Positions 3,094 to 46,207 of a DNA stretch of 51,197 bases are shown one piece after another. The DNA is from Holophagae bacterium (lineage in GTDB: Bacteria; Acidobacteriota; Thermoanaerobaculia; Thermoanaerobaculales; Thermoanaerobaculaceae). The notes below the pieces were generated by a model. The model was not told where the DNA came from. It worked only from the letters and a program-made list of their open reading frames with translations, and did no database searches. The stretch is taken from NCBI GenBank assembly GCA_012516935.1, contig JAAYVZ010000236.1:1-51197 (forward strand), written 5' to 3'. Made by a program: the position numbers and the translations under genes. How positions within the stretch are numbered: the stretch's first letter is position 1; every line of letters starts with the position of its first letter.

Positions 3094-3959
3094 CAGCGTT
3101 CCTCCTCGGCCGCCTCGGCGTCGACGGCCAGCGGCCCCTCCTCCGCGAAGGCCTCGCGGGTCTCCAAGTTGAAGCGTCCACCGGCAACCAGGACATGCAA
3201 CCGGACGTTGAGCATAGATACGGGCTCGCCGTCAGCCACCCGCCCCATGGCGCTGTAGGTGAGCTGGCTCGCATCCACGACCGTCAGCGCCTCCTTGCCC
3301 ACGACCTCGATCACGTTGTCGGGGCCGATAAAGGCGGCGGTGTCCTCATCGAGGCCGAGACCGACCGGGAACGGGTTGTAGGCAAGGGCGGCGAGCAACC
3401 GGCCAAGCCGGTCGCGCTGGCGGAAATGCTGGTCGATGATGACTTTGTTGGTCAAACCAAGCCCTGCCGCGAGACGCACCATCGCGGCGCGGGGGGTACC
3501 TCCCTCGTCGCCACCGGCGATCATGTGCTCGGAGATGAACGAGGCGCCGGCCGAGGTGCCGGCCACGACCACACCGGCGGCGTTGCGCCGGCGAATCAGT
3601 CGCGCCGCCTCGGTGCCGCCGAGCGTGGTGGTGAGTCGGAGCTGGTTGCCGCCGGTGAGGAAGATCCCGGTGGCCGAGGCCAGCTCCTCGAGCACCGTCG
3701 GGCGCTCGCAATCGAGCCGGTGCTCGATTGGCAACGAGCGCGCCGACCAGACTCCGAGGTCGCGAAAGATTCGCTCGTAGTTGGCGCCGGTATCGGGCTG
3801 TTCGGAGGCAGTGGGGACAATGGCGATGCGGGCGTCGCGTCCGCCGGCGAGCTCGACGAAACGGCGCAGGATCGTGCGGTCGGCCAGCTTGTCCTCGGCG
3901 CCGCCGATGGGAACGATGAAGCCGCGGAAGGATCGGGAGACGGAGCGGGATGGACTCAT
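3093..3959 (-). CDS. cphB: Cyanophycinase (peptidase family S51)
   Basis: 288 residues when started at ATG 3959. This start is preferred over upstream in-frame codons because the N-terminus then runs straight into the family strand FIVPIGGAEDKL. Cyanophycinase hydrolyses cyanophycin to beta-Asp-Arg dipeptides. The nucleophile elbow GTSAGA places the catalytic Ser at 136. An LTGGNQ loop lies near 102-107. It is the first gene of a minus-strand operon followed by cphA and the cphA'-like gene. Upstream, a TTGACG hexamer (3993-3998, minus) and CACAAT (3968-3973, minus) lie 19 nt apart, with the -10 only 8 nt from the ATG, so the transcript may be leaderless. No signal peptide is seen, in keeping with an intracellular enzyme. 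Confidence 0.93.
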   Translation of the reverse strand: MSPSRSVSRSFRGFIVPIGGAEDKLADRTILRRFVELAGGRDARIAIVPTASEQPDTGANYERIFRDLGVWSARSLPIEHRLDCERPTVLEELASATGIFLTGGNQLRLTTTLGGTEAARLIRRRNAAGVVVAGTSAGASFISEHMIAGGDEGGTPRAAMVRLAAGLGLTNKVIIDQHFRQRDRLGRLLAALAYNPFPVGLGLDEDTAAFIGPDNVIEVVGKEALTVVDASQLTYSAMGRVADGEPVSMLNVRLHVLVAGGRFNLETREAFAEEGPLAVDAEAAEEER

Positions 3960-3967
3960 ACGCCCCC

Positions 3968-3998
3968 ATTGTGGGCCGGGCCCCCCCGGGGACGTCAA
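3968..3998 (-). promoter_or_regulatory. Candidate promoter of the cyanophycin operon
   Basis: On the minus strand TTGACG (3998-3993) and CACAAT (3973-3968) are separated by 19 nt. The -10 lies 8 nt before the cphB ATG, which would put the transcription start at or next to the start codon. The spacing is longer than ideal. Confidence 0.4.
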
Positions 3999-4131
3999 CC
4001 TCCGTCCTCCGCCGCAGCTGTCCGCCCACCCGTTCGACCGCTCGAAAGCCAAACACCGTCCGCCACCTGACCGGTCGCGAGTCGGAAGACGGGTATCGTC
4101 CCCTGCTCCCTCACGCGGCCGGTCCGGTGGG

Positions 4132-4162
4132 TTGCTCGGATGGGCGGGGACGGAGGTATGAT
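4132..4162 (+). promoter_or_regulatory. Candidate promoter of the MIO lyase gene
   Basis: TTGCTC at 4132-4137 and TATGAT at 4157-4162 are 19 nt apart, upstream of a leader of about 45 nt that carries a hairpin and a Shine-Dalgarno sequence. Confidence 0.4.
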
Positions 4163-4178
4163 GCCCGGACAACGCGCC

Positions 4179-4198
4179 TGGGGCCGCGCAAGGCCCCA
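4179..4198 (+). promoter_or_regulatory. 7-bp inverted repeat in the 5' leader of the MIO lyase gene
   Basis: TGGGGCC (4179-4185) pairs perfectly with GGCCCCA (4192-4198) around a 6-nt loop. It ends 5 nt before the AAGGAGA ribosome binding site at 4204-4210. It could be an operator half-site pair or an RNA hairpin that affects access to the RBS. Confidence 0.35.
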
Positions 4199-4215
4199 CG
4201 CCCAAGGAGACCCCC

Positions 4216-5748
4216 ATGGCCGTGATCTGTGACGGACACCATCTGCGGATCGAGGACGTCGTACGCGTGGCCCGCTACGGCGAAAAGGTCGAGCTGGCGC
4301 CGGAGGCGCTGGAACGGATCAAGCTCTGCCGCGGCATGCTGGAGCGCAAGGTCGTCGCCCACGAGATCATGTACGGTGTCAACACGGGCATCGGCGAGTT
4401 CTCCGAGGTGGTGCTCGACGACGAGCAGGTCAAGCAGTTCCAACGCTACCTGATCTATAACCACGCGGCCGGTATCGGCCAGCCGTGTCCGATCGAGCAC
4501 GTGCGTGCGGCGATCCTCTCGCGCATCAACGTGCACGCCCGCGGCTACTCCGGCTGTCGTCCCGAGATCACCTTCACGTACATCGATTTGCTCAACAAAG
4601 GCGTGACTCCGGTGGTGTGCGAGAAGGGGTCGGTCGGCGCCTGCGGCGACCTCTCGCCGATGAGCCAGCTCGCCCTCTCGTTGATGGGTGAGGGCGAGGC
4701 GTTCTACCACGGCGAGCGCATGCCGACGGCACGGGCGATGGAGCTGGCGGGGATCCCGGTGCCGGGGCTGCAGGCCCGCGACGGTCTCGCCGCCATCAAC
4801 GGTTCGAACCTCATCACCGGCATCGCCTGTCTGATCCTGTACGACGCCGAGCGCTGGATCAAACAGGCCGAGATCGGCGCCGCGATGTCCCTCGAGGCGC
4901 TGCTCGCCAATATGAAGCCGTATCAGGAAAAGCTCCACGTGCTGCGCGGCTTCAAAGGCGCCATCACCTGCGCCCGCAACCTCCGCCAGGTGATCGCCGG
5001 CTCCGACCTCGTGACCGGCAAGCTCAAGACCAAGGTCCAGGACGCCTACTCGATGCGCTCGACGCCGCAAGTCATCGGCGCGCTCCGCGATGCCATGGTG
5101 TACGCCCGCACCCAGGTCGAGATCGAGCTCAACGCCGTGGCCGATAACCCGGTGTTCGTGGCCGAGGATAACTTGGTGCTCACCGGTGCCAACTTCCAGG
5201 GCACGCCGGTATCGATGCCGCTCGACCTGATCGGGGCTGGAATCACGACCGTCTCGGTGCTTTCCGAGCGTCGGCTCAACCGACTCCTCAACTCGGCGCT
5301 GTCGGTCGGCCTGCCCGACTTCCTCACCAAGGGCGCCGGGATGTTCTCCGGGCTCATGCTTTCCCAGTACACCGCCGACACCCTGATCGTCGAGCAACGC
5401 ATCCTGTCGACCCCGTCGTGTACCCAGTCGATTCCGGCCGCGGCTGACCAGGAAGACTTCGTGTCGATGGGCATGAACGCTGCGCTCAAGACCAAGCAGA
5501 TCCTGACCAACGCGTACGGCGTCCTGGGGATCGAGCTGATCGCTGCGGCGCAGGCGCTCGACTTCCGGGAGTTCACTCCTGGGGCCGGTACGCGTGCCGC
5601 CAAGGCGGCGATCCGCGAGGTGGTCGAGCACCTCGACGTGGACCGCCCGCTCTTCCCCGACCACAACGCGATGATGGCCGCGGTCGAGCGTGGCGATGTC
5701 CTCGAGGCCGTGCAGGCCGCGGTGGGTGAGCTCACGAGCTCTTGGTAG
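4216..5748 (+). CDS. Histidine-ammonia-lyase-type MIO enzyme with Cys in the MIO triad
   Basis: 510 residues, the usual size of bacterial histidine ammonia-lyase (HAL), which removes ammonia from L-His to give urocanate through a self-made methylidene-imidazolone (MIO) group. Active-site positions line up with Pseudomonas putida HAL almost without offset: Tyr53, His83, Asn195, Gln275, Tyr278, Arg281, Phe327 and Glu413 (Q277/Y280/R283/F329/E414 there). The MIO triad, normally Ala-Ser-Gly, reads Ala142-Cys143-Gly144 (codon TGC). After Glu413 comes Asp-Phe where HALs usually have Asp-His. ATG 4216 follows AAGGAGA by 5 nt. The gene stands alone, divergent from the cyanophycin operon, with no hutU/hutI/hutG nearby, so a His-degradation role is not supported by context. 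A Phe- or Tyr-specific lyase or an aminomutase is possible, though His83 favours a HAL-like pocket. Confidence 0.85.
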   Translation: MAVICDGHHLRIEDVVRVARYGEKVELAPEALERIKLCRGMLERKVVAHEIMYGVNTGIGEFSEVVLDDEQVKQFQRYLIYNHAAGIGQPCPIEHVRAAILSRINVHARGYSGCRPEITFTYIDLLNKGVTPVVCEKGSVGACGDLSPMSQLALSLMGEGEAFYHGERMPTARAMELAGIPVPGLQARDGLAAINGSNLITGIACLILYDAERWIKQAEIGAAMSLEALLANMKPYQEKLHVLRGFKGAITCARNLRQVIAGSDLVTGKLKTKVQDAYSMRSTPQVIGALRDAMVYARTQVEIELNAVADNPVFVAEDNLVLTGANFQGTPVSMPLDLIGAGITTVSVLSERRLNRLLNSALSVGLPDFLTKGAGMFSGLMLSQYTADTLIVEQRILSTPSCTQSIPAAADQEDFVSMGMNAALKTKQILTNAYGVLGIELIAAAQALDFREFTPGAGTRAAKAAIREVVEHLDVDRPLFPDHNAMMAAVERGDVLEAVQAAVGELTSSW

Positions 5749-5861
5749 GGTTCAACAGGCGAGGGCTCGGGACCGGCAACGGGGACCTCGGTCGAGGTGC
5801 ACGGTCGAGGGCTGGTATCCGGAAGGCACCGGCTTTCACGAGTCCCGGATCGTGGTCGTGC

Positions 5862-5880
5862 TAGCCTGCCCGAGCGGAGG
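5862..5880 (+). promoter_or_regulatory. Extended -10 box and RBS before the MuiA-family gene
   Basis: TGC followed by TAGCCT (5862-5867) forms an extended -10-like element. A GGAGG ribosome binding site (5876-5880) lies 7 nt before the ATG. No good -35 is seen. The rest of the 139-bp gap after the lyase gene holds nothing recognisable. Confidence 0.3.
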
Positions 5881-5887
5881 ATCTGCC

Positions 5888-7474
5888 ATGCGTGAGCTGA
5901 CGACGCGGGTGGTAGCGGTGACCGTGTACACCGATCGGGCGAGAGCGACGCGGGAAGGGCGGGCGGAGGTGGAGATCGGAGCCTGCAAGCTCGAGATCGG
6001 TGAGCTGCCACTCGGGCTCGAACCGGCGAGCGTGCGAGCGAAGGTTCGCGGCACCGCTCGAGCCCGGCTGATGGGTGTCGAGGTGCGCCGCCGCACGTAC
6101 GCCGAGACTCCGGTCGAGACGGTCCGGGTGCTCGAGCAGAAGCTCGAGGCGCTCGCCGACCAGATCACCGAGCTCGAGGCGCAGACGAAGCTGGCAGAGG
6201 AGGAACGGCAGGCGGTTCGTGGGCTGTGCGAGGCTACCGACTTCTACGCTCGGGGGCTCGCGCGCGGGACCATGAAGGTGGCCGACGAGGTGGCGCTACT
6301 GGACGCGCTGCGGCAGCGCGCGGCTGACCTCGATCAGCTCGGGCAGGCTCTGGCGATCCGCCTCCGTGGGCTCGCGCGAGAGCAGCACCTCGTCGCGTCC
6401 CAGCTCGCGGAGGTCAAAGGTGCTCGCGGCCGCGAGCGGCAGGTGGCCACAGTGGAGCTCGACGTCACCCAGTCGGGTGAGGTGGTCGTCGAGCTTTCGT
6501 ACGTGCTGAGCGGCGCCAGCTGGTCACCGCTTTACGATCTGCGGCTGGTCGAGCATCCTGCTGGTGCCACCCTCGAGGTCGGCTACCTCGCCCAGGTCCA
6601 GCAGCACACCGGTGAGAGCTGGACGGGTGTCGAGCTGACGCTCTCCACGGCGCGTCCCGCGCTCGCGGCCCACACTCCCGAGCTGCAGCCATGGTATTTG
6701 AGCCCGCCGCTGTCGCGGCCGGCGCGGGCGAAAGTGGCGCCGTCCCTGGCTGCGATGGGCGCCGGTGTCGACAGCTTCGTGCGCAGCAAGGAGGCCGAGC
6801 CCGAGCTGGCGGTCGAGGAGATGGTGGTCGAAGATGCGGTGGCCACGGTCGAAACCTCCGGCGCCGCCGTCACCTTCCGCATCCCCGGTGTGGTCGACGT
6901 TCCGTCGGACGGGGCCTCGCACAAGGTCACCGTCGCCCGTCTCGAGTGGCCTGCCGGCCTCGACTACGTCACCGCACCCAAGGAGGTGACAGCCGCCTAT
7001 CGCCGGGCCAGGACGCACAACCGCAGCCCGTACTCGCTCTTGCCGGGTGACGCCACGCTCTTCGACGGTGACGAGCTGGTCGGAGCGAGCCGACTGCCGC
7101 ACACCCCGCCCGACGGCGAGCTCGAGCTCTACCTCGGGGTCGACGAGCGCCTCTCGGTGAGAAGGGAGCTGCGACGCCGCGACGTCGACCGCAAGCTCCT
7201 GGGCGACGGCAGGCGGGTGAGCGTCGGCTACGAGATTTCGCTCGAGAGCGTGTTGCCGACGGCGGCCCGGGTGCGGGTGGAGGACCAATTGCCGGTGCCC
7301 CGCCACGAGTCGATCAGGGTCCGGCTCGAACAAGCCGAGCCGAAGCCGGCCGAACAGACCGAGCTCGGGTTGCTCCGCTGGGAACTGGACCTCGAGCCGG
7401 GGCAGAAGCGAACCGTGCGGTTCGACTTCCAGATCGAGCATCCGCGCGAGATGCAGGTCATGGGGATGCCGTAA
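5888..7474 (+). CDS. MuiA-family protein (DUF4140/DUF4139)
   Basis: 528 residues from ATG 5888, chosen because GGAGG lies 7 nt upstream and the family motif VTVYTDRARATR begins at about residue 10. This is the layout of the mucoidy-inhibitor MuiA family: an N-terminal DUF4140 beta domain (about 10-100), a charged helical, probably coiled-coil, section rich in Glu/Leu/Arg (about 85-180), and a C-terminal DUF4139 region with the SGASWSPLYDLRL motif near residue 210. A link to exopolysaccharide control is known only for a few members; the biochemical role is unknown. No signal peptide or membrane helix is visible. It stands alone between the lyase gene and the antisense-oriented selC. Confidence 0.85.
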   Translation: MRELTTRVVAVTVYTDRARATREGRAEVEIGACKLEIGELPLGLEPASVRAKVRGTARARLMGVEVRRRTYAETPVETVRVLEQKLEALADQITELEAQTKLAEEERQAVRGLCEATDFYARGLARGTMKVADEVALLDALRQRAADLDQLGQALAIRLRGLAREQHLVASQLAEVKGARGRERQVATVELDVTQSGEVVVELSYVLSGASWSPLYDLRLVEHPAGATLEVGYLAQVQQHTGESWTGVELTLSTARPALAAHTPELQPWYLSPPLSRPARAKVAPSLAAMGAGVDSFVRSKEAEPELAVEEMVVEDAVATVETSGAAVTFRIPGVVDVPSDGASHKVTVARLEWPAGLDYVTAPKEVTAAYRRARTHNRSPYSLLPGDATLFDGDELVGASRLPHTPPDGELELYLGVDERLSVRRELRRRDVDRKLLGDGRRVSVGYEISLESVLPTAARVRVEDQLPVPRHESIRVRLEQAEPKPAEQTELGLLRWELDLEPGQKRTVRFDFQIEHPREMQVMGMP

Positions 7475-7556
7475 CCCCGGGTTGCCGGCTTCCCACCGTC
7501 GTTCCTCACCGACGGCGATCCACAGGCATCGTGGTCGGGGACAGAGCGGAAGGAGG
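7475..7556. other. Short gap between the MuiA-family gene and selC
   Basis: 82 bp between two convergent genes. No clear hairpin with a T-run is visible, so termination of either transcript cannot be assigned. Confidence 0.5.
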
Positions 7557-7655
7557 TGGCGGAAGCGCATGGGAATCGAACCCACCCACCGTACGGCAGC
7601 CGCACGGCGCAACGGTTTTGAAGACCGCGGAAGCCACCAGGCCCCGGGCGCTTCC
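7557..7655 (-). tRNA. selC: tRNA-Sec (anticodon TCA)
   Basis: The minus strand folds as a selenocysteine tRNA. It has an 8-bp acceptor stem (GGAAGCGC at 7655-7648 with GCGCTTCC), discriminator G and an encoded CCA. The D arm has a 6-bp stem with a 4-nt loop. The anticodon arm has the loop CTTCAAA, with TCA at 7621-7619. A long extra arm has about nine or ten pairs including G-U, and the T arm has loop TTCGATT. The 99-nt length, the 8-bp acceptor and the 6-bp D stem separate it from tRNA-Ser and from a UGA suppressor. It lets UGA be read as selenocysteine by SelA/SelB. Neither those genes nor an evident selenoprotein is in this window. Confidence 0.96.
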
Positions 7656-40529: not shown

Positions 40530-41572
40530 GCGCACCGACCGATTCTCCCCTCACGTACGCCTCCGCGGGGGTGGACATCGATGCCCAGGACCGGGCGCTC
40601 GTCGGGGTGAAACGCCTCGCGAGGTCCACCTTCACGGCCGGTGTGCTGTCGGACATCGGGGCGTTCGGCGGGCTGTTCACGCTCGAGCCCGACAACCCTG
40701 CGGGGCAGGTGCTGGTCGCCTCCGCCGACGGCGTCGGCACCAAGCTCAAGGTGGCGCAACTGGCCGGTATCCACGACACCGTGGGCGAAGACCTCGTCAA
40801 CCACTGCGTCAACGACATCCTGGTGTGCGGGGCGCGGCCGCTGTTTTTCCTCGACTACTTCGCCTCGGGCACGCTCGAGCCCGGCGTCATGGTACGGGTG
40901 GTCGAAGGGTTGGCGCGCGGTTGCCGGGCCAACGCCTGCGCACTGCTCGGCGGCGAGACGGCCGAGATGCCGGGGTTTTACGCCCGAGGTGAGTACGAGC
41001 TGGCGGGGTTCGTCGTCGGCGGCTGCCGCCGCGACCGGCTGCTCCGGCGCGAGGCGGTGGTGGCCGGCGACGTGCTGGTGGCGCTGCCCTCGACCGGTCT
41101 GCACACCAACGGCTACTCCCTGGCACGGCGCATCTTCTTCGAGGTGCTGGGCCTGGGGGTGGACAGCCCGGTGCCCGAGCTGGGCCGTACGGTCGCCGAG
41201 GCGCTGCTGGCCGTCCATCGCTCGTACCTGCCGGCGGTCGGCCCACTGCTGGAGCGGGGCTTCGTCAAGGCCGCAGCGCACGTCACCGGTGGCGGGATCC
41301 CCGACAACCTCCCGCGTGCCCTGCCCGCGGGGCTCGGAGCCGAGATCTTCGTCGACTCGTGGGACGAGCCGCCGCTGTTCGGGCTGCTGCGCCGGGCCGG
41401 CCGTGTCCCCGAGGACGACATGCGCCGCACCTTCAACCTCGGCGTCGGCATGATCCTGGTGGTCGCCGAGGAAAGCCTCGGCGACGTCCTGGAGTCGCTC
41501 GTGCCCCACGGTCCCGGCTGGGTCGTCGGCCGGGTCGCCGGCGAGCCCGGCGTGAGGTTCGTCCGCCGATGA
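40526..41572 (+). CDS. purM: Phosphoribosylformylglycinamidine cyclo-ligase (AIR synthetase)
   Basis: 348 residues from ATG 40526 (ATGA overlap with purF). Motifs include SADGVGTKLKVA, HCVNDILVCGARPLFFLDY, GGETAEMPGFY, LPSTGLHTNGYSLARR and HVTGGGIPDNLPR. It closes the imidazole ring, turning FGAM into AIR with ATP. The overall length fits the family. Confidence 0.96.
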
Positions 41573-42228
41573 GCAAGGGAAGGGGAACGGGGGATGGGGG
41601 AGGGTGCCCGCCCCCGCCCGAGACACGACCTGCCAGGGTGGCGGTGCTGCTTTCCGGACGTGGCTCCAACTTCGTGGCGCTGGCCGACGGCTGCGCTCGC
41701 GGCGAGGTGCCAGCCGAAATCGTGCTGGTGCTCTCCGACAGGCCCGACGCCCCGGGTCTTGCTCGAGCGCGGGAGCGCGGCATCCCCACCCGCGTCATCC
41801 CGCGCAAAGGGCTCGGCCAGCAGGAGCAGGAGCGGCAGATGGTCGCCGCCGTCCGCGCGGCGGGTACCGAGTGGGTCTGCCTGGCCGGGTACATGCGCAT
41901 TCTCGGTGCTGAGTTCGTCGCCGCCTTCCCCGAGCGCATCCTCAACATCCACCCGGCGCTGCTGCCGGCGTTCCCGGGGCGCGAGGCGCAGCGCCAGGCG
42001 TTCGAGTACGGCGTCAAGGTCTCCGGCTGCACCGTGCACCTCGTCGACGCCGGGTGCGACACCGGCCCGATCGTGGCCCAGCGCGCCGTGCCGGTGCTCG
42101 ACGACGACACGACGGAGACGCTCGCCGCCCGCATCCTCGAGCAGGAGCACCGCGCCTACGCCGAGGCGCTGCGCCTCCTGCTCACCCGCGGTTGGCACGT
42201 CGAGGGCAGGCGGGTGGTGTTCGGGTAG
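41569..42228 (+). CDS. purN: Phosphoribosylglycinamide formyltransferase
   Basis: 219 residues from ATG 41569 (ATGA overlap with purM). The N-terminal 22 residues (Gly/Pro-rich) are an extra tail before the family start VAVLLSGRGSNF. The catalytic region has LAGYMRIL, the NIHPALLPAFPG motif with the catalytic Asn/His, and DTGPIVAQ. It makes FGAR from GAR and 10-formyl-THF. It is the last gene of the purine operon. A 25-bp repeat begins 3 nt after the stop. Confidence 0.95.
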   Translation: MSKGRGTGDGGGCPPPPETRPARVAVLLSGRGSNFVALADGCARGEVPAEIVLVLSDRPDAPGLARARERGIPTRVIPRKGLGQQEQERQMVAAVRAAGTEWVCLAGYMRILGAEFVAAFPERILNIHPALLPAFPGREAQRQAFEYGVKVSGCTVHLVDAGCDTGPIVAQRAVPVLDDDTTETLAARILEQEHRAYAEALRLLLTRGWHVEGRRVVFG

Positions 42229-42610
42229 CTGCCGTTTCGGAATCGATCGTGACATTGCCGAGGAGTCGTACAGCGGCGCCATAGGTCGAGCCGGTCGGGG
42301 TCGGGGTTTTTGTCTTCGCAAACCCTGGCGAGGGTTGACTCGTGGGTAGTCTCGTGGTGGTAGTCGTACAGCACGATGAACCAAGAACCCAAAGGCCCAC
42401 GGGCAGCTCGCCTCAGGCAACGCAAGGGCGACCTCCAGCGCCGCTCCGGGATCCCTCCCGCGTTTCCCACAGCCGCTTGGAAAACGCTTCGCGTTTCCCG
42501 CAACTCCCACAGGCCCGACGACGACGGGGAACCTCTCGTATACCACGTCAGGGGACTCTACTCTCTTCAGACCCCTGCCGGCGGGCCTTCCGGAGATTCG
42601 GAGGTGAGAG
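42229..42610. other. Gene-free stretch after purN
   Basis: 382 bp. It contains the first copy of the 25-bp repeat. An AACCCT/AGGGTT inverted repeat lies at 42321-42336. A near-perfect hairpin at 42479-42498 has stem strands GGAAAACGC and GCGTTTCC, close to a repeated CGCGTTTCCC. A GGAGGTGA ribosome binding site lies at 42600-42607. Codon-like periodicity is absent on both strands, and short frames here have no recognisable homology. It may hold remnants of an older element. Confidence 0.5.
42231..42255 (+). repeat. 25-bp direct repeat, copy 1
   Basis: Identical over 25 bp to 44827-44851 and in the same orientation. It begins GCCGTTTCGGAATCGATC. It starts 3 nt after the purN stop and could be one border of an inserted segment. 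Confidence 0.85.
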
Positions 42611-44503
42611 ATGCATAGAGTGTGGCGGGTTGTTGCGGGCAGCCTGGTTGCTCTCCTTGCGGTTGCGGCGACGTGCGCCGCGGAGCCCATCCAACTACCG
42701 ACCGGTACGGGTTCTGCTCGGCTCGCGTGGGTTCGAGACAGTGACGTTCAGTTGGCATCGACTTCGTTGCCGGGAACGACCGACCTTTCGCGAGGGCATG
42801 GTTGTTTGGTGCTCGCTGTTTCAGGCCAACCCGTGCAATGGCGGGAGGTTTCCCTCCCCGAAGAGGCTTCGGTTGTGGCGAAGCTGCTTGCGCCCAATCC
42901 AGGCGCGCGAGTGGGTGGCACGGTGCGAACGCGCGACCTTTGGGCGTTCACACCCAGTGTCGAGGCCACGCTGCTCGGCGCTCGGGTTCCGGACTCCTGT
43001 CTGAGGGGGCTGGCGGCTCTCGGAGCCTTGGAAGCACAGGTGGACTCGCATGGCCGTTTCGAGCTCGGTCCGTTGCCGAGCGGCCGTTGGCGCCTCCTCT
43101 TCAAGGCGCAGTATCACAAAGGGATCACGAAGGAAATCGCGATTGAGGGAAAAGAGGGGACGCTCGAAACAGGCGAGCTCGACCTCGAGCCCATTGCCGT
43201 AACGAGGGTGCGTGTCGAGTCCGAGCTCGAGAGCCCCCCCTACGCACTCCGGGTCGAGGAGGGCGAACGAAAGGACGAGCAGGCACCCTGGCGCTTCGTA
43301 CGACCACGTGACCTCGAGATGGATACCGCGCAAACGGAGCTCGAGCTTGCAACCGGAACGCACCGGTTCACGCTGACCAAGGTCGGAACCGAGCTGGGGT
43401 TCACAGCGGAGGCTGATCTGCAACCGGGCGAGCAGGAGTTGGTGCTGAGGCCAGTACCGTTCACCATCGAGGGGAGAGTCCTCCGGGGCGAGCACGGGGT
43501 TGCCGACGTGCGACTACTGATCTCCCGTCGGGGCCAGAAAGCGGAGGTAGAGAGCGGAATCGCGGGGGCGTTCACTCTTCGCTTGTGGGCGCCTGACATG
43601 TACCTCGTGGAGGCGCATCCACCAGAGGGCGACTTTGAGGCCGTTCTGCTCGACGCAAGGGAAGCGAAGGAGGGCGAGGTTCTCAAGCGGGATATTCTGC
43701 TCGGGAGCCGGGTTCTCAGCGGCATCGTTGTCGGAGCGCCCGAAGGAGCACCCCTGGCAGCAGCAGATGTCGCGGTGTCTCAAGAGGGCGGTGGGCGGCG
43801 CTATGTGTCGAGCTACGAGGCGAAGGACGACGGGTCCTTCCAGATCTACCTGAAGGATGAGCTGAGTGTAGAAGTGTACGCCTCAGCACGCGGCTACCTT
43901 CCGAGGACTGTTGCCTTGGGCAAGAACCCCGCCCCGTCACCGATCACGATCTCGCTGGAAAAAGGTGTGGAGGTGGTTGGCCAAGTGGTTGGCACAGCGG
44001 GAACACCGGTCGCGGGCGCGCTGGTGATCGGGTTTTCTCCGGGGCCGGACGGCAAACGGTCGTGCAGCACGGAGTCGGATGCGGCTGGGCGATTTGTGCT
44101 GACGTGTCCGACCGGGACGGTCGTCTTCGCCGTCGCAGCGGGACATACACTCGACTGGGTCACTGCGAGTGAACACGAGGTCCTGCTCAGACTCGGTGCG
44201 CAGGGGCCCCCGTCGCCGTTGACCATCCTAGCCGCCGACGGTGAGCCAGCAGCAGGCGCTGGCCTTGCGTTTCAGAAAGAGGATGGGGTCTGGATTCCGT
44301 TTGACCTGGTTTTCCGGGCCTTGACGGCGATGGGCCTTCCTGGGCGCACTGCCGAGAACGGCGGCGTCTCGCTCTCCTTCCTGCCACCCGGGAGATACGG
44401 CACGTTCCTCGTGGCGCGAACTGGGGTCGTTCCGCTCGGTGTCGTGCTTCTCCCCACGTCGACGCCGAGCTCTTTCAAGCTGCCTCGCACGCCACCCGGG
44501 TAG
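42611..44503 (+). CDS. Large secreted protein with carboxypeptidase-regulatory-like repeats
   Basis: 630 residues from ATG 42611, with GGAGGTGA just upstream. A signal peptide of about 23 residues (VAGSLVALLAVAATCAA) predicts export. The rest is beta-rich, with repeated units that resemble carboxypeptidase regulatory-like (CarboxypepD_reg) or prealbumin-like domains: for example GRFELGPLPSGRWRLLFKA near 145-163, TIEGRVLRGEHGVADV near 280, and GQVVGTAGTPVAGALVIG near 455 followed by DAAGRFVLTCPTG. No catalytic motif, cell-wall anchor or membrane helix is seen at the C-terminus. Such proteins are often surface or carbohydrate-associated. Specific function is unknown. It sits alone between two repeat copies. 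Confidence 0.75.
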   Translation: MHRVWRVVAGSLVALLAVAATCAAEPIQLPTGTGSARLAWVRDSDVQLASTSLPGTTDLSRGHGCLVLAVSGQPVQWREVSLPEEASVVAKLLAPNPGARVGGTVRTRDLWAFTPSVEATLLGARVPDSCLRGLAALGALEAQVDSHGRFELGPLPSGRWRLLFKAQYHKGITKEIAIEGKEGTLETGELDLEPIAVTRVRVESELESPPYALRVEEGERKDEQAPWRFVRPRDLEMDTAQTELELATGTHRFTLTKVGTELGFTAEADLQPGEQELVLRPVPFTIEGRVLRGEHGVADVRLLISRRGQKAEVESGIAGAFTLRLWAPDMYLVEAHPPEGDFEAVLLDAREAKEGEVLKRDILLGSRVLSGIVVGAPEGAPLAAADVAVSQEGGGRRYVSSYEAKDDGSFQIYLKDELSVEVYASARGYLPRTVALGKNPAPSPITISLEKGVEVVGQVVGTAGTPVAGALVIGFSPGPDGKRSCSTESDAAGRFVLTCPTGTVVFAVAAGHTLDWVTASEHEVLLRLGAQGPPSPLTILAADGEPAAGAGLAFQKEDGVWIPFDLVFRALTAMGLPGRTAENGGVSLSFLPPGRYGTFLVARTGVVPLGVVLLPTSTPSSFKLPRTPPG

Positions 44504-44826
44504 GACCCTGCTGCGCCGGTCCAGGTCACGAACTGCTGGGCGGGCAGTCGGCTTTCTCCCGCCATCTAAACGGAAAGCGGAACCCGAGCTTGCCGCCGAG
44601 TCGCCCGTGAAGTACTCGTGGAACATGACCCGTCGCATGGTGCCTCGCCTCGCGCACTGCGAAAGCAGTGGGCAAGCAGCGTTGCTCTCTTGGGGCTCGA
44701 GGTAGCACGAGCACCACGCGCAGCCCCGGGGAACGCGTCGATTCGTCGATGCTGGTGTGGCGTCCGTCCCCCTCTCGTGCGACCGCGAATGGGGAAGACG
44801 GGCATCCCGAGCGGGCGATGGCCCCA

Positions 44827-44851
44827 GCCGTTTCGGAATCGATCGTGACAT
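44827..44851 (+). repeat. 25-bp direct repeat, copy 2
   Basis: Same 25 bases and orientation as 42231-42255; identity ends abruptly at both sides. It lies 105 bp upstream of the lipoprotein promoter. Confidence 0.85.
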
Positions 44852-44991: not shown

Positions 44992-45315
44992 ATGCACCGA
45001 GGTTTCTTCGCAGTCGCGCTCGTCCTCGCACTGGTGGTGCCCCTCGTGGGGTGCGCGAGCGCCAAGCCCACGGACTGGACCGGCCATCACATCGACGAGG
45101 TGATTGCCAAGCTCGGTCCCGCCAAACGGATCGTGCCGCAGGGCGAGAACAAGATGTACGTTTGGGAGGTGGAGCGCCGGATGGCCGCCCCGCCGACCAT
45201 CGACCCGGCCACTGGGCGTACGACCCCGAGCCCGCCAGCCGTGGCCTACACCTCGGTGCGATCTTTCTACGTCGGCCGGGACGGCATCATCATCTCGTAC
45301 ACCTGGCAGGAGTAG
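44992..45315 (+). CDS. Small lipoprotein of unknown function
   Basis: 107 residues from ATG 44992. Signal peptide with lipobox LVGC (Cys21). The mature part begins with DWTGHHIDEVIAKLGPAKR, reminiscent of SmpA/OmlA-like small lipoproteins that contain a short helix followed by a beta meander, with YVWEVER and a last strand DGIIISYTWQE. It has its own promoter. Its 3' end overlaps the 3' end of the convergent hydrolase gene by 26 bp. Outer-membrane assembly is a guess from fold resemblance only. Confidence 0.75.
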   Translation: MHRGFFAVALVLALVVPLVGCASAKPTDWTGHHIDEVIAKLGPAKRIVPQGENKMYVWEVERRMAAPPTIDPATGRTTPSPPAVAYTSVRSFYVGRDGIIISYTWQE

Positions 45316-46207
45316 CTTTTTCGCCCAGGCCGGCTCGGGCGAGCTCCACGAGGGCGGCGAGCAGCGCCTCCCCGCCGGCGTCGAAGGTGTCGTTGTGGCC
45401 GGCGAGCTCGACCGCGAAGAACCGTTTCGGTTCCCTCGCCGCGGCGTACAGCCGCTCACCCTGGGCGAACGGCACGACCTCGTCGGCCCGGCTGTGGATG
45501 ATGAGCACCGGGCAGCCGACCGAGGCGATCCTCGACAGGGAGTCCATCTGGGTGCGGACGAAAAGCCGTGGCACGAACGGGTAGTGGTGCGCAGCCAGGT
45601 CCGGGATCGAGGTGAACGTCGACTGCAGCACGAGGCCGGCCGGGTGGACGTCGCTCGCGAGGCGCGTTGCCACCCCCCCGCCGAGCGACTTGCCGTAGAC
45701 GACGACCCGCCTCGCCGGCAGCCCACGGTCTTCCGTCAAAAAGCGCCACACCGTCCGGGCGTCCTCGTACAGCCCCTCCTCGCCCGGGCGGCCCTCGCTG
45801 CGGCCGTACCCGCGGTAGTCGGGGATGAGGACGTCCATCCCCAGGTGCCGGGCGAGTGTTGCCACCACGGCGCCACGGTGCGAGAGGTTGCCGGCATTGC
45901 CGTGGAGGTACAGCAGGGCCGAGCGGATCGTCTCACCTGGCGGAGCCGGGTCCGGCGGGCTCACCCACCAGGCGTGGAGACGCACGCCGTCCGAGGTGGT
46001 GAGGAAGCGGTCCTCGAGCTGGCAGCCCGTGCGGCGCCGCCACGCCCCGAGGTCCCACTCGCCGATCGGATACCGCGCCGGAAAGAAAATGAGGTGGCGC
46101 TCGAGCAGCATCAGGCCTCCCACCGCCACCGCGACCACCAGGGCGAGCCAGCCGAGCAGCCGGGCGCGCCGCCGGAATCGCCGGCTGTCCTCAGGTACGA
46201 GGCTCAC
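45290..46207 (-). CDS. Membrane-anchored alpha/beta hydrolase
   Basis: 305 residues from GTG 46207, which overlaps the stop of the sulfatase-family gene (GTGA). An N-terminal membrane helix (about 16-34, LLGWLALVVAVAVGGLMLL) suggests an anchored periplasmic enzyme. The hydrolase fold has oxyanion region YLHGNAGN, nucleophile GKSLGG, acid HSRADEVVP and catalytic His in AGHND. The layout matches the BEM46/ABHD13-like group, whose substrates are mostly unknown. Coupling to a membrane sulfatase/phosphotransferase gene suggests work on the same envelope substrate. The convergent lipoprotein gene overlaps its end. Confidence 0.88.
   Translation of the reverse strand: MSLVPEDSRRFRRRARLLGWLALVVAVAVGGLMLLERHLIFFPARYPIGEWDLGAWRRRTGCQLEDRFLTTSDGVRLHAWWVSPPDPAPPGETIRSALLYLHGNAGNLSHRGAVVATLARHLGMDVLIPDYRGYGRSEGRPGEEGLYEDARTVWRFLTEDRGLPARRVVVYGKSLGGGVATRLASDVHPAGLVLQSTFTSIPDLAAHHYPFVPRLFVRTQMDSLSRIASVGCPVLIIHSRADEVVPFAQGERLYAAAREPKRFFAVELAGHNDTFDAGGEALLAALVELARAGLGEKATPARCTR

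What the first reader, a model, noticed from the sequence alone, without database searches (positions are those of the whole stretch)
42231..44851. 2.6-kb segment between perfect 25-bp direct repeats
Identical 25-bp sequences in the same orientation flank a segment with one large secreted protein and gene-poor DNA, inserted right after purN. The composition looks different from the surrounding operons. This is what a site-specific insertion or a recombined cassette leaves behind; no recombinase is inside, so it may be mobilised in trans or be a member of a repeat family.
Basis: partly seen in the sequence, partly recalled or inferred. Interest (0 to 1): 0.55.

Follow-up and report, generated by a model that had tools for sequence, protein, structure and literature searches.

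The report
Repeat-flanked one-gene segment after purN
A 2.6-kb stretch with one secreted-protein gene sits between two identical 25-base repeats and is missing from the sister species, so it looks like an ordinary acquired or variable scrap of DNA rather than a new kind of mobile element.

Summary
A perfect 25-bp direct repeat (42231-42255, 44827-44851) flanks 2,571 bp carrying one intact 630-aa ORF with CarboxypepD_reg domains and otherwise gene-poor DNA. The 25-mer has only these two copies in the 3.72-Mb assembly, even with 3 mismatches, and none in 38 relatives, so it is not a dispersed repeat family. In the one other genome held of the genus, purN runs straight into a convergent hydrolase gene; the segment, the small lipoprotein gene after it and the 25-mer are absent there. 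The locus is variable, but the clean one-repeat empty site was not seen. No recombinase was found in the ORFs scanned and there are no terminal inverted repeats. The only tyrosine recombinases found in the genome are XerC/XerD-like. The 5' spacer holds a worn terminus of an IS256-type element. A decayed fragment of a related gene lies between recQ and efp elsewhere. Best reading: a variable segment flanked by short direct repeats, gained or lost by short-homology recombination. A known kind; low interest.

The parts
41569..42228 (+). purN (phosphoribosylglycinamide formyltransferase), left neighbour
   Evidence: Pfam Formyl_trans_N, E 4.7e-58
42231..42255 (+). 25-bp direct repeat, left copy
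42459..42562 (-). worn terminus of an IS256-type (Mutator family) insertion sequence; no transposase left
   Evidence: 79-90% matches in G068, G096, G001, G065; common sharp end after ...GGACNCTACT in the 5 aligned sequences (coordinate); Transposase_mut ORF beside 2 of those copies, G068 and G065
42611..44503 (+). 630-aa protein with CarboxypepD_reg domains, apparently secreted (signal peptide judged by eye)
   Evidence: Pfam PF13620, E 2.3e-21, 3 stretches; no relative found in PDB sequences, viral contigs, plasmids or phages
44737..44802 (.). fragment resembling a sequence found 3 times in relative G002
   Evidence: 75-78% over 67-71 bp (first seen)
44827..44851 (+). 25-bp direct repeat, right copy
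44992..45315 (+). 107-aa small lipoprotein gene (lipobox by eye), also absent at this place in G001
   Evidence: homologues in 7 of 147 other genomes of the class; translation and GC3 0.87
45290..46207 (-). alpha/beta-hydrolase gene (named from its sequence; no family search was made), right neighbour of purN in the sister species
   Evidence: tblastn 62% identity over 266 aa in G001; sequence

Best explanation
The 2.6-kb stretch is a variable chromosomal segment: a mosaic of one lineage-specific secreted-protein gene and insertion-sequence debris. It sits in the junction between two genes that are neighbours in the sister species. The flanking 25-bp repeat is the footprint of the recombination that joined it in, most likely short-homology (RecA-independent, illegitimate) recombination that used or left the two copies of the 25-mer. 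The same repeats would let the segment be lost again, leaving one copy. Shown: the repeat and its uniqueness, absence of segment and repeat in the sister species, no terminal inverted repeats, no recombinase in the ORFs scanned, IS debris, and a decayed relative of the gene elsewhere in the genome. Inferred: that the repeats took part in the event, the direction (gain rather than loss), and the RecA-independent route. The cargo gene is probably an ordinary periplasmic or surface beta-sandwich protein (inferred from its domain family) with no part in mobility.
For: Exact repeat with sharp edges, about 3e-5 expected by chance. Only two copies in the genome, none in 38 relatives. Sister G001: purN and hydrolase abut with overlapping stops. 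At E 1e-12 the gene is found in only 2 of 148 genomes of the class, the own one and one distant relative at 30% identity. A 220-nt, 81% remnant lies at C17:318-535 between recQ and efp; no such fragment was found in the stretch held upstream of efp in 4 relatives examined. Composition mildly atypical. IS terminus remnant ending at 42562. No TIR (8 of 30 matches at the inner edges). Only XerC/XerD-like tyrosine recombinases found. In Genome Biol 2010 (PMC2884548, passages read) 10-18% of variable segments in three species have flanking direct repeats, 66-94% of those under 30 bp; the authors think short-homology illegitimate recombination likely.
Against: G001 lacks the 25-mer and also the lipoprotein gene, so the difference from G001 is larger than the repeat-bounded segment and need not be the same event. 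A 25-bp match between incoming and resident DNA is long for chance microhomology, which leaves room for a site-specific site. No genome with one repeat copy was found. Only one other genome of the genus (81% complete) was available, and none of the same species.
Confidence: 0.55

Rival explanations
1. Remnant or satellite of a site-specific integrated element: the 25-mer is the att core, with attL and attR flanking a small cargo whose integrase was lost or acts in trans.
For: Direct repeats of att-like length right behind a gene end (2 nt after the purN stop), no TIR, mildly atypical cargo.
Against: No integrase in the ORFs scanned; only XerC/XerD-like tyrosine recombinases found in the genome; the 25-mer has no dyad symmetry beyond chance (485 of 2000 shuffles as good); no further copies in the genome or in 38 relatives; no part of purN lies in the repeat. 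Serine recombinases not searched.
Confidence: 0.2
2. The locus differs because the G001 lineage deleted the block, and the 25-mer is a sequence duplicated for another reason, such as a shared regulatory site upstream of the two genes (355 bp and 140 bp before their start codons).
For: G001 lacks lipoprotein and segment together; homologues of the lipoprotein exist in 7 of 147 other class genomes, so it may be old; each repeat copy lies upstream of a gene on the same strand.
Against: A perfect 25-mer without symmetry and without other genomic copies is unlike a regulator's sites; the 630-aa gene is nearly confined to this genome.
Confidence: 0.15
3. A transposon or IS-made insertion with a long target-site duplication.
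For: An IS256-type end lies inside the segment.
Against: That end lies 307 bp inside the left repeat and is partial; no TIR at the segment edges; no transposase in the ORFs scanned.
Confidence: 0.05
4. Assembly artefact: a chimeric join at a 25-mer in this 293-contig assembly.
For: Fragmented assembly in which two contigs end in the same repeat.
Against: Two joins at the same 25-mer would be needed; a fragment related to the cargo gene lies in the same genome.
Confidence: 0.05

Closest known systems
Small variable segments flanked by short direct repeats (Genome Biol 2010, PMC2884548; passages read)
   Same: Segment present or absent at a locus, direct repeats mostly under 30 bp at its base, no transposase or integrase needed.
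   Different: Described within species, with the main finding on segments of 20-500 bp; here 2.6 kb with an intact gene, and only one other species of the genus to compare.
E. coli H47 genomic island (PMC3191183: abstract and part 1 of 2 of Results; PMC5426353: abstract and Discussion)
   Same: Cargo between direct repeats with no recombinase of its own; perfect stretches of 11-20 bp there, 25 bp here.
   Different: H47 repeats are 146/148 bp and imperfect, the island is 13 kb, excision was seen by PCR (the authors cannot wholly exclude PCR chimeras and found no host function responsible), and empty sites exist in many strains. None of this is shown here.

Membership tests
Variable segment flanked by short direct repeats | Directly oriented repeats at the segment's base, under 30 bp | tested here: met
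   25 of 25 bp
Variable segment flanked by short direct repeats | Segment absent at the same locus in a related genome | tested here: met
   G001, (the absent block is larger than the segment, and G001 is another species)
Variable segment flanked by short direct repeats | A genome with one repeat copy and no segment (precise empty site) | tested here: inconclusive
   No 25-mer in 38 relatives; no same-species genome among them
Recombinase-less mobile island (H47 type) | No recombinase gene inside | tested here: met
   630-aa ORF and six spacer ORFs scanned against Pfam; other frames not scanned
Recombinase-less mobile island (H47 type) | Excision or circular form detected | not testable with these tools
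   needs cells or reads
Integrase-type genomic island | Integrase gene in the element | tested here: not met
   the genome's two Phage_integrase matches lie on other contigs
DDE transposon with target-site duplication | Terminal inverted repeats just inside the duplication | tested here: not met
   8 of 30 at the inner edges, no inverted match better than E 1.2 between the 150-nt inner ends
DDE transposon with target-site duplication | Transposase | tested here: not met
   2 copies with up to 3 mismatches in 3,719,233 bases

The most novel reading that the evidence does not exclude
The 25-mer is a true crossover site at which a host recombinase (for example the XerC/XerD-like pair or an unrecognised serine recombinase) moves a single secreted-protein gene as a minimal cassette without any mobility gene, docking behind purN.
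Probability: 0.06. Interest if true: 0.45.

Novelty: new member of a known kind. Interest (0 to 1): 0.15.

Why it matters
It is a clear instance of gene turnover between neighbouring conserved genes without visible mobile-element machinery. If the repeats do recombine, it would add a 25-bp, 2.6-kb case to the few recombinase-less small islands described. Otherwise it is ordinary genome flux.

Tried and rejected
Rejected: a repeat family; a viral, phage or plasmid cargo gene (searches found no relative; the 25-mer's 20-nt core had no hit in viral contigs; the 5' spacer had no plasmid match); a transposon with TIRs; a structured RNA in the segment (one search gave only two sub-threshold miRNA matches, both outside it). 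Promoter and terminator scans were no better than shuffles. Two exact hits of the 20-nt core in the genome collection lie in records titled Alistipes and Clostridia and were taken as chance; their surroundings were not read. NCBIfam gave only sub-cutoff matches for the 630-aa protein. No structure prediction was run, because a fold of the cargo protein would not decide the question. One paper search gave nothing I used.

A slip: the lipoprotein was first handled in the wrong frame (44994 instead of 44992) (second protein; second protein); those lipoprotein results are discarded and replaced. One search's gene set was filtered on GC3 above 0.75, so its ranking of the 630-aa gene is partly circular; one search replaces it with unfiltered longest ORFs, some of which may be false frames.

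Limits: the DNA searches over the class scored only 4 candidates per genome and the protein search up to 8, so absence there is weak. The exact-repeat survey covers 438,504 of 3.72 million bases.

Full report
Observation. The two 25-bp copies are exact, in the same orientation, at the stated places, and identity ends at once on both sides. About 3e-5 such pairs would be expected in the window by base composition, and 0 of 100 shuffles held two. Within the window this is the only exact direct repeat of 18 nt or more. In 40 further stretches of the same genome, 9 of them wholly masked, pairs at least 300 bp apart were 18-20 nt long, apart from one cluster of repeated sequence in L093; closer pairs include 87 and 25 nt in L090. 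The pair is real and unusual for this genome.

Is it a repeat family? No. With up to 3 mismatches the 25-mer has 2 matches in the 3,719,233-base genome, both here, and none in 38 relatives (1 of 39 genomes, the own one). Its 20-nt core had no hit in viral contigs and two hits, in records titled Alistipes and Clostridia, in the species collection, taken as chance.

What is inside. One intact ORF of 630 aa (42611-44503) carries CarboxypepD_reg domains and an apparent signal peptide (by eye). It has no match in solved-structure sequences, viral contigs, plasmids or phages. Among 148 genomes of the class only the own genome and one distant relative (30% identity) match at E 1e-12; at E 0.001, 4 of 38 near relatives match weakly over part of the protein. 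A 220-nt relative of the gene's 3' end, 81% identical and with a 2-nt gap, lies at C17:318-535 between recQ and efp (gene names from their sequences). Differences between the two within the coding part fall mostly at third codon positions (18 of 33), so the family was probably once under selection as a protein. In the 4 relatives whose efp region was examined (G001, G003, G006, G008) no such fragment was found in the stretch held upstream of efp.

The 5' spacer (42256-42610) holds a worn insertion-sequence terminus ending at 42562. It aligns with sequences in G068, G096, G001 and G065 that all end at the same ...GGACNCTACT boundary; two of these copies, in G068 and G065, sit beside a Mutator/IS256 transposase ORF. 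The 3' spacer contains a 66-bp fragment resembling a sequence found three times in G002. None of the six spacer ORFs scanned has a convincing domain. So the segment is one gene plus debris. Its composition is mildly atypical: lower GC than its surroundings, and a GC3 of 0.71 that 14 of 134 long ORFs equal or undercut.

Sister comparison. In G001, the only other genome of the genus in the search (81% complete), the purN stop codon overlaps the end of the convergent hydrolase gene, with nothing between. The segment, the 25-mer and the 107-aa lipoprotein gene that follows are all missing there. The lipoprotein has native-like GC3 (0.87) and relatives in 7 of 147 other class genomes, but none found in G001. 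In the 11 other relatives whose purN region was fetched, the tblastn found no hydrolase in the stretch held, but in 6 of those 11 the contig ends within 2 kb of purN. Gain in this species and loss in G001 therefore cannot be separated firmly. That the 630-aa gene is nearly confined to this genome favours gain of the segment.

Mechanism. There are no inverted repeats at the segment edges (8 of 30 matches), no transposase or recombinase domain in the ORFs scanned, and no dyad symmetry in the 25-mer beyond chance. The only two Pfam Phage_integrase matches in the genome are XerC-like (just reaching the NCBIfam XerC cut-off) and XerD-like (a contig-end fragment that passes the general Xer-type subfamily model NF001399 but scores just below the XerD cut-off). 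This leaves short-homology recombination as the simplest account, and an att-like relic as the main rival. A published survey found that 10-18% of variable segments in three bacterial species are flanked by direct repeats, mostly under 30 bp, and its authors think short-homology illegitimate recombination likely (PMC2884548, passages read). For the E. coli H47 island, PCR evidence was reported that a cargo between direct repeats can excise without its own recombinase; the host function was not found and the authors could not wholly exclude PCR chimeras (PMC3191183 and PMC5426353).

Verdict. The clean empty site that would prove the repeats' role was not available.

Noticed in passing
window 42463-42525; L018 6-65; L064-L074: A ~55-bp sequence with a hairpin (by eye TTGGAAAACGCTNCGCGTTTCCCACAGCTCCCACAGNCCCGACGACGA): part or all of it matches in 31 of 147 other class genomes (query 42229-42615). 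Copies lie near transposase genes of different families (IstB in L068, Mu-type C-terminal domain in L069, Mutator/IS256 in L076 and L082, IS110 in L079). Why unrelated IS share it is unexplained.
   Followed up: partly
L017 318-535 (own genome C17): Decayed 3' remnant of a relative of the 630-aa gene between recQ and efp.
   Followed up: yes
L060 3974-4222 and 5578-5826 (G005): A second, partial purN 3' end (81.6% identical over 250 bp) lies about 1.35 kb downstream of the intact purN, as if another element had inserted behind purN in a different genus.
   Followed up: partly
L051-L062, purN regions of relatives: In 7 of the 12 relatives fetched (G001, G003, G004, G006, G008, G013, G014) the contig ends within 2 kb downstream of purN, as if this junction often holds repeats or variable DNA.
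   Followed up: no
L085, L088, L089 (G002): Three dispersed copies of a sequence sharing the ...GGAAGACGGG end with window 44737-44802.
   Followed up: partly
L093 (own genome C4), about 3933-7600: Cluster of many exact 18-49-nt repeats, many spaced at multiples of 108 bp, probably reiterated coding repeats.
   Followed up: no
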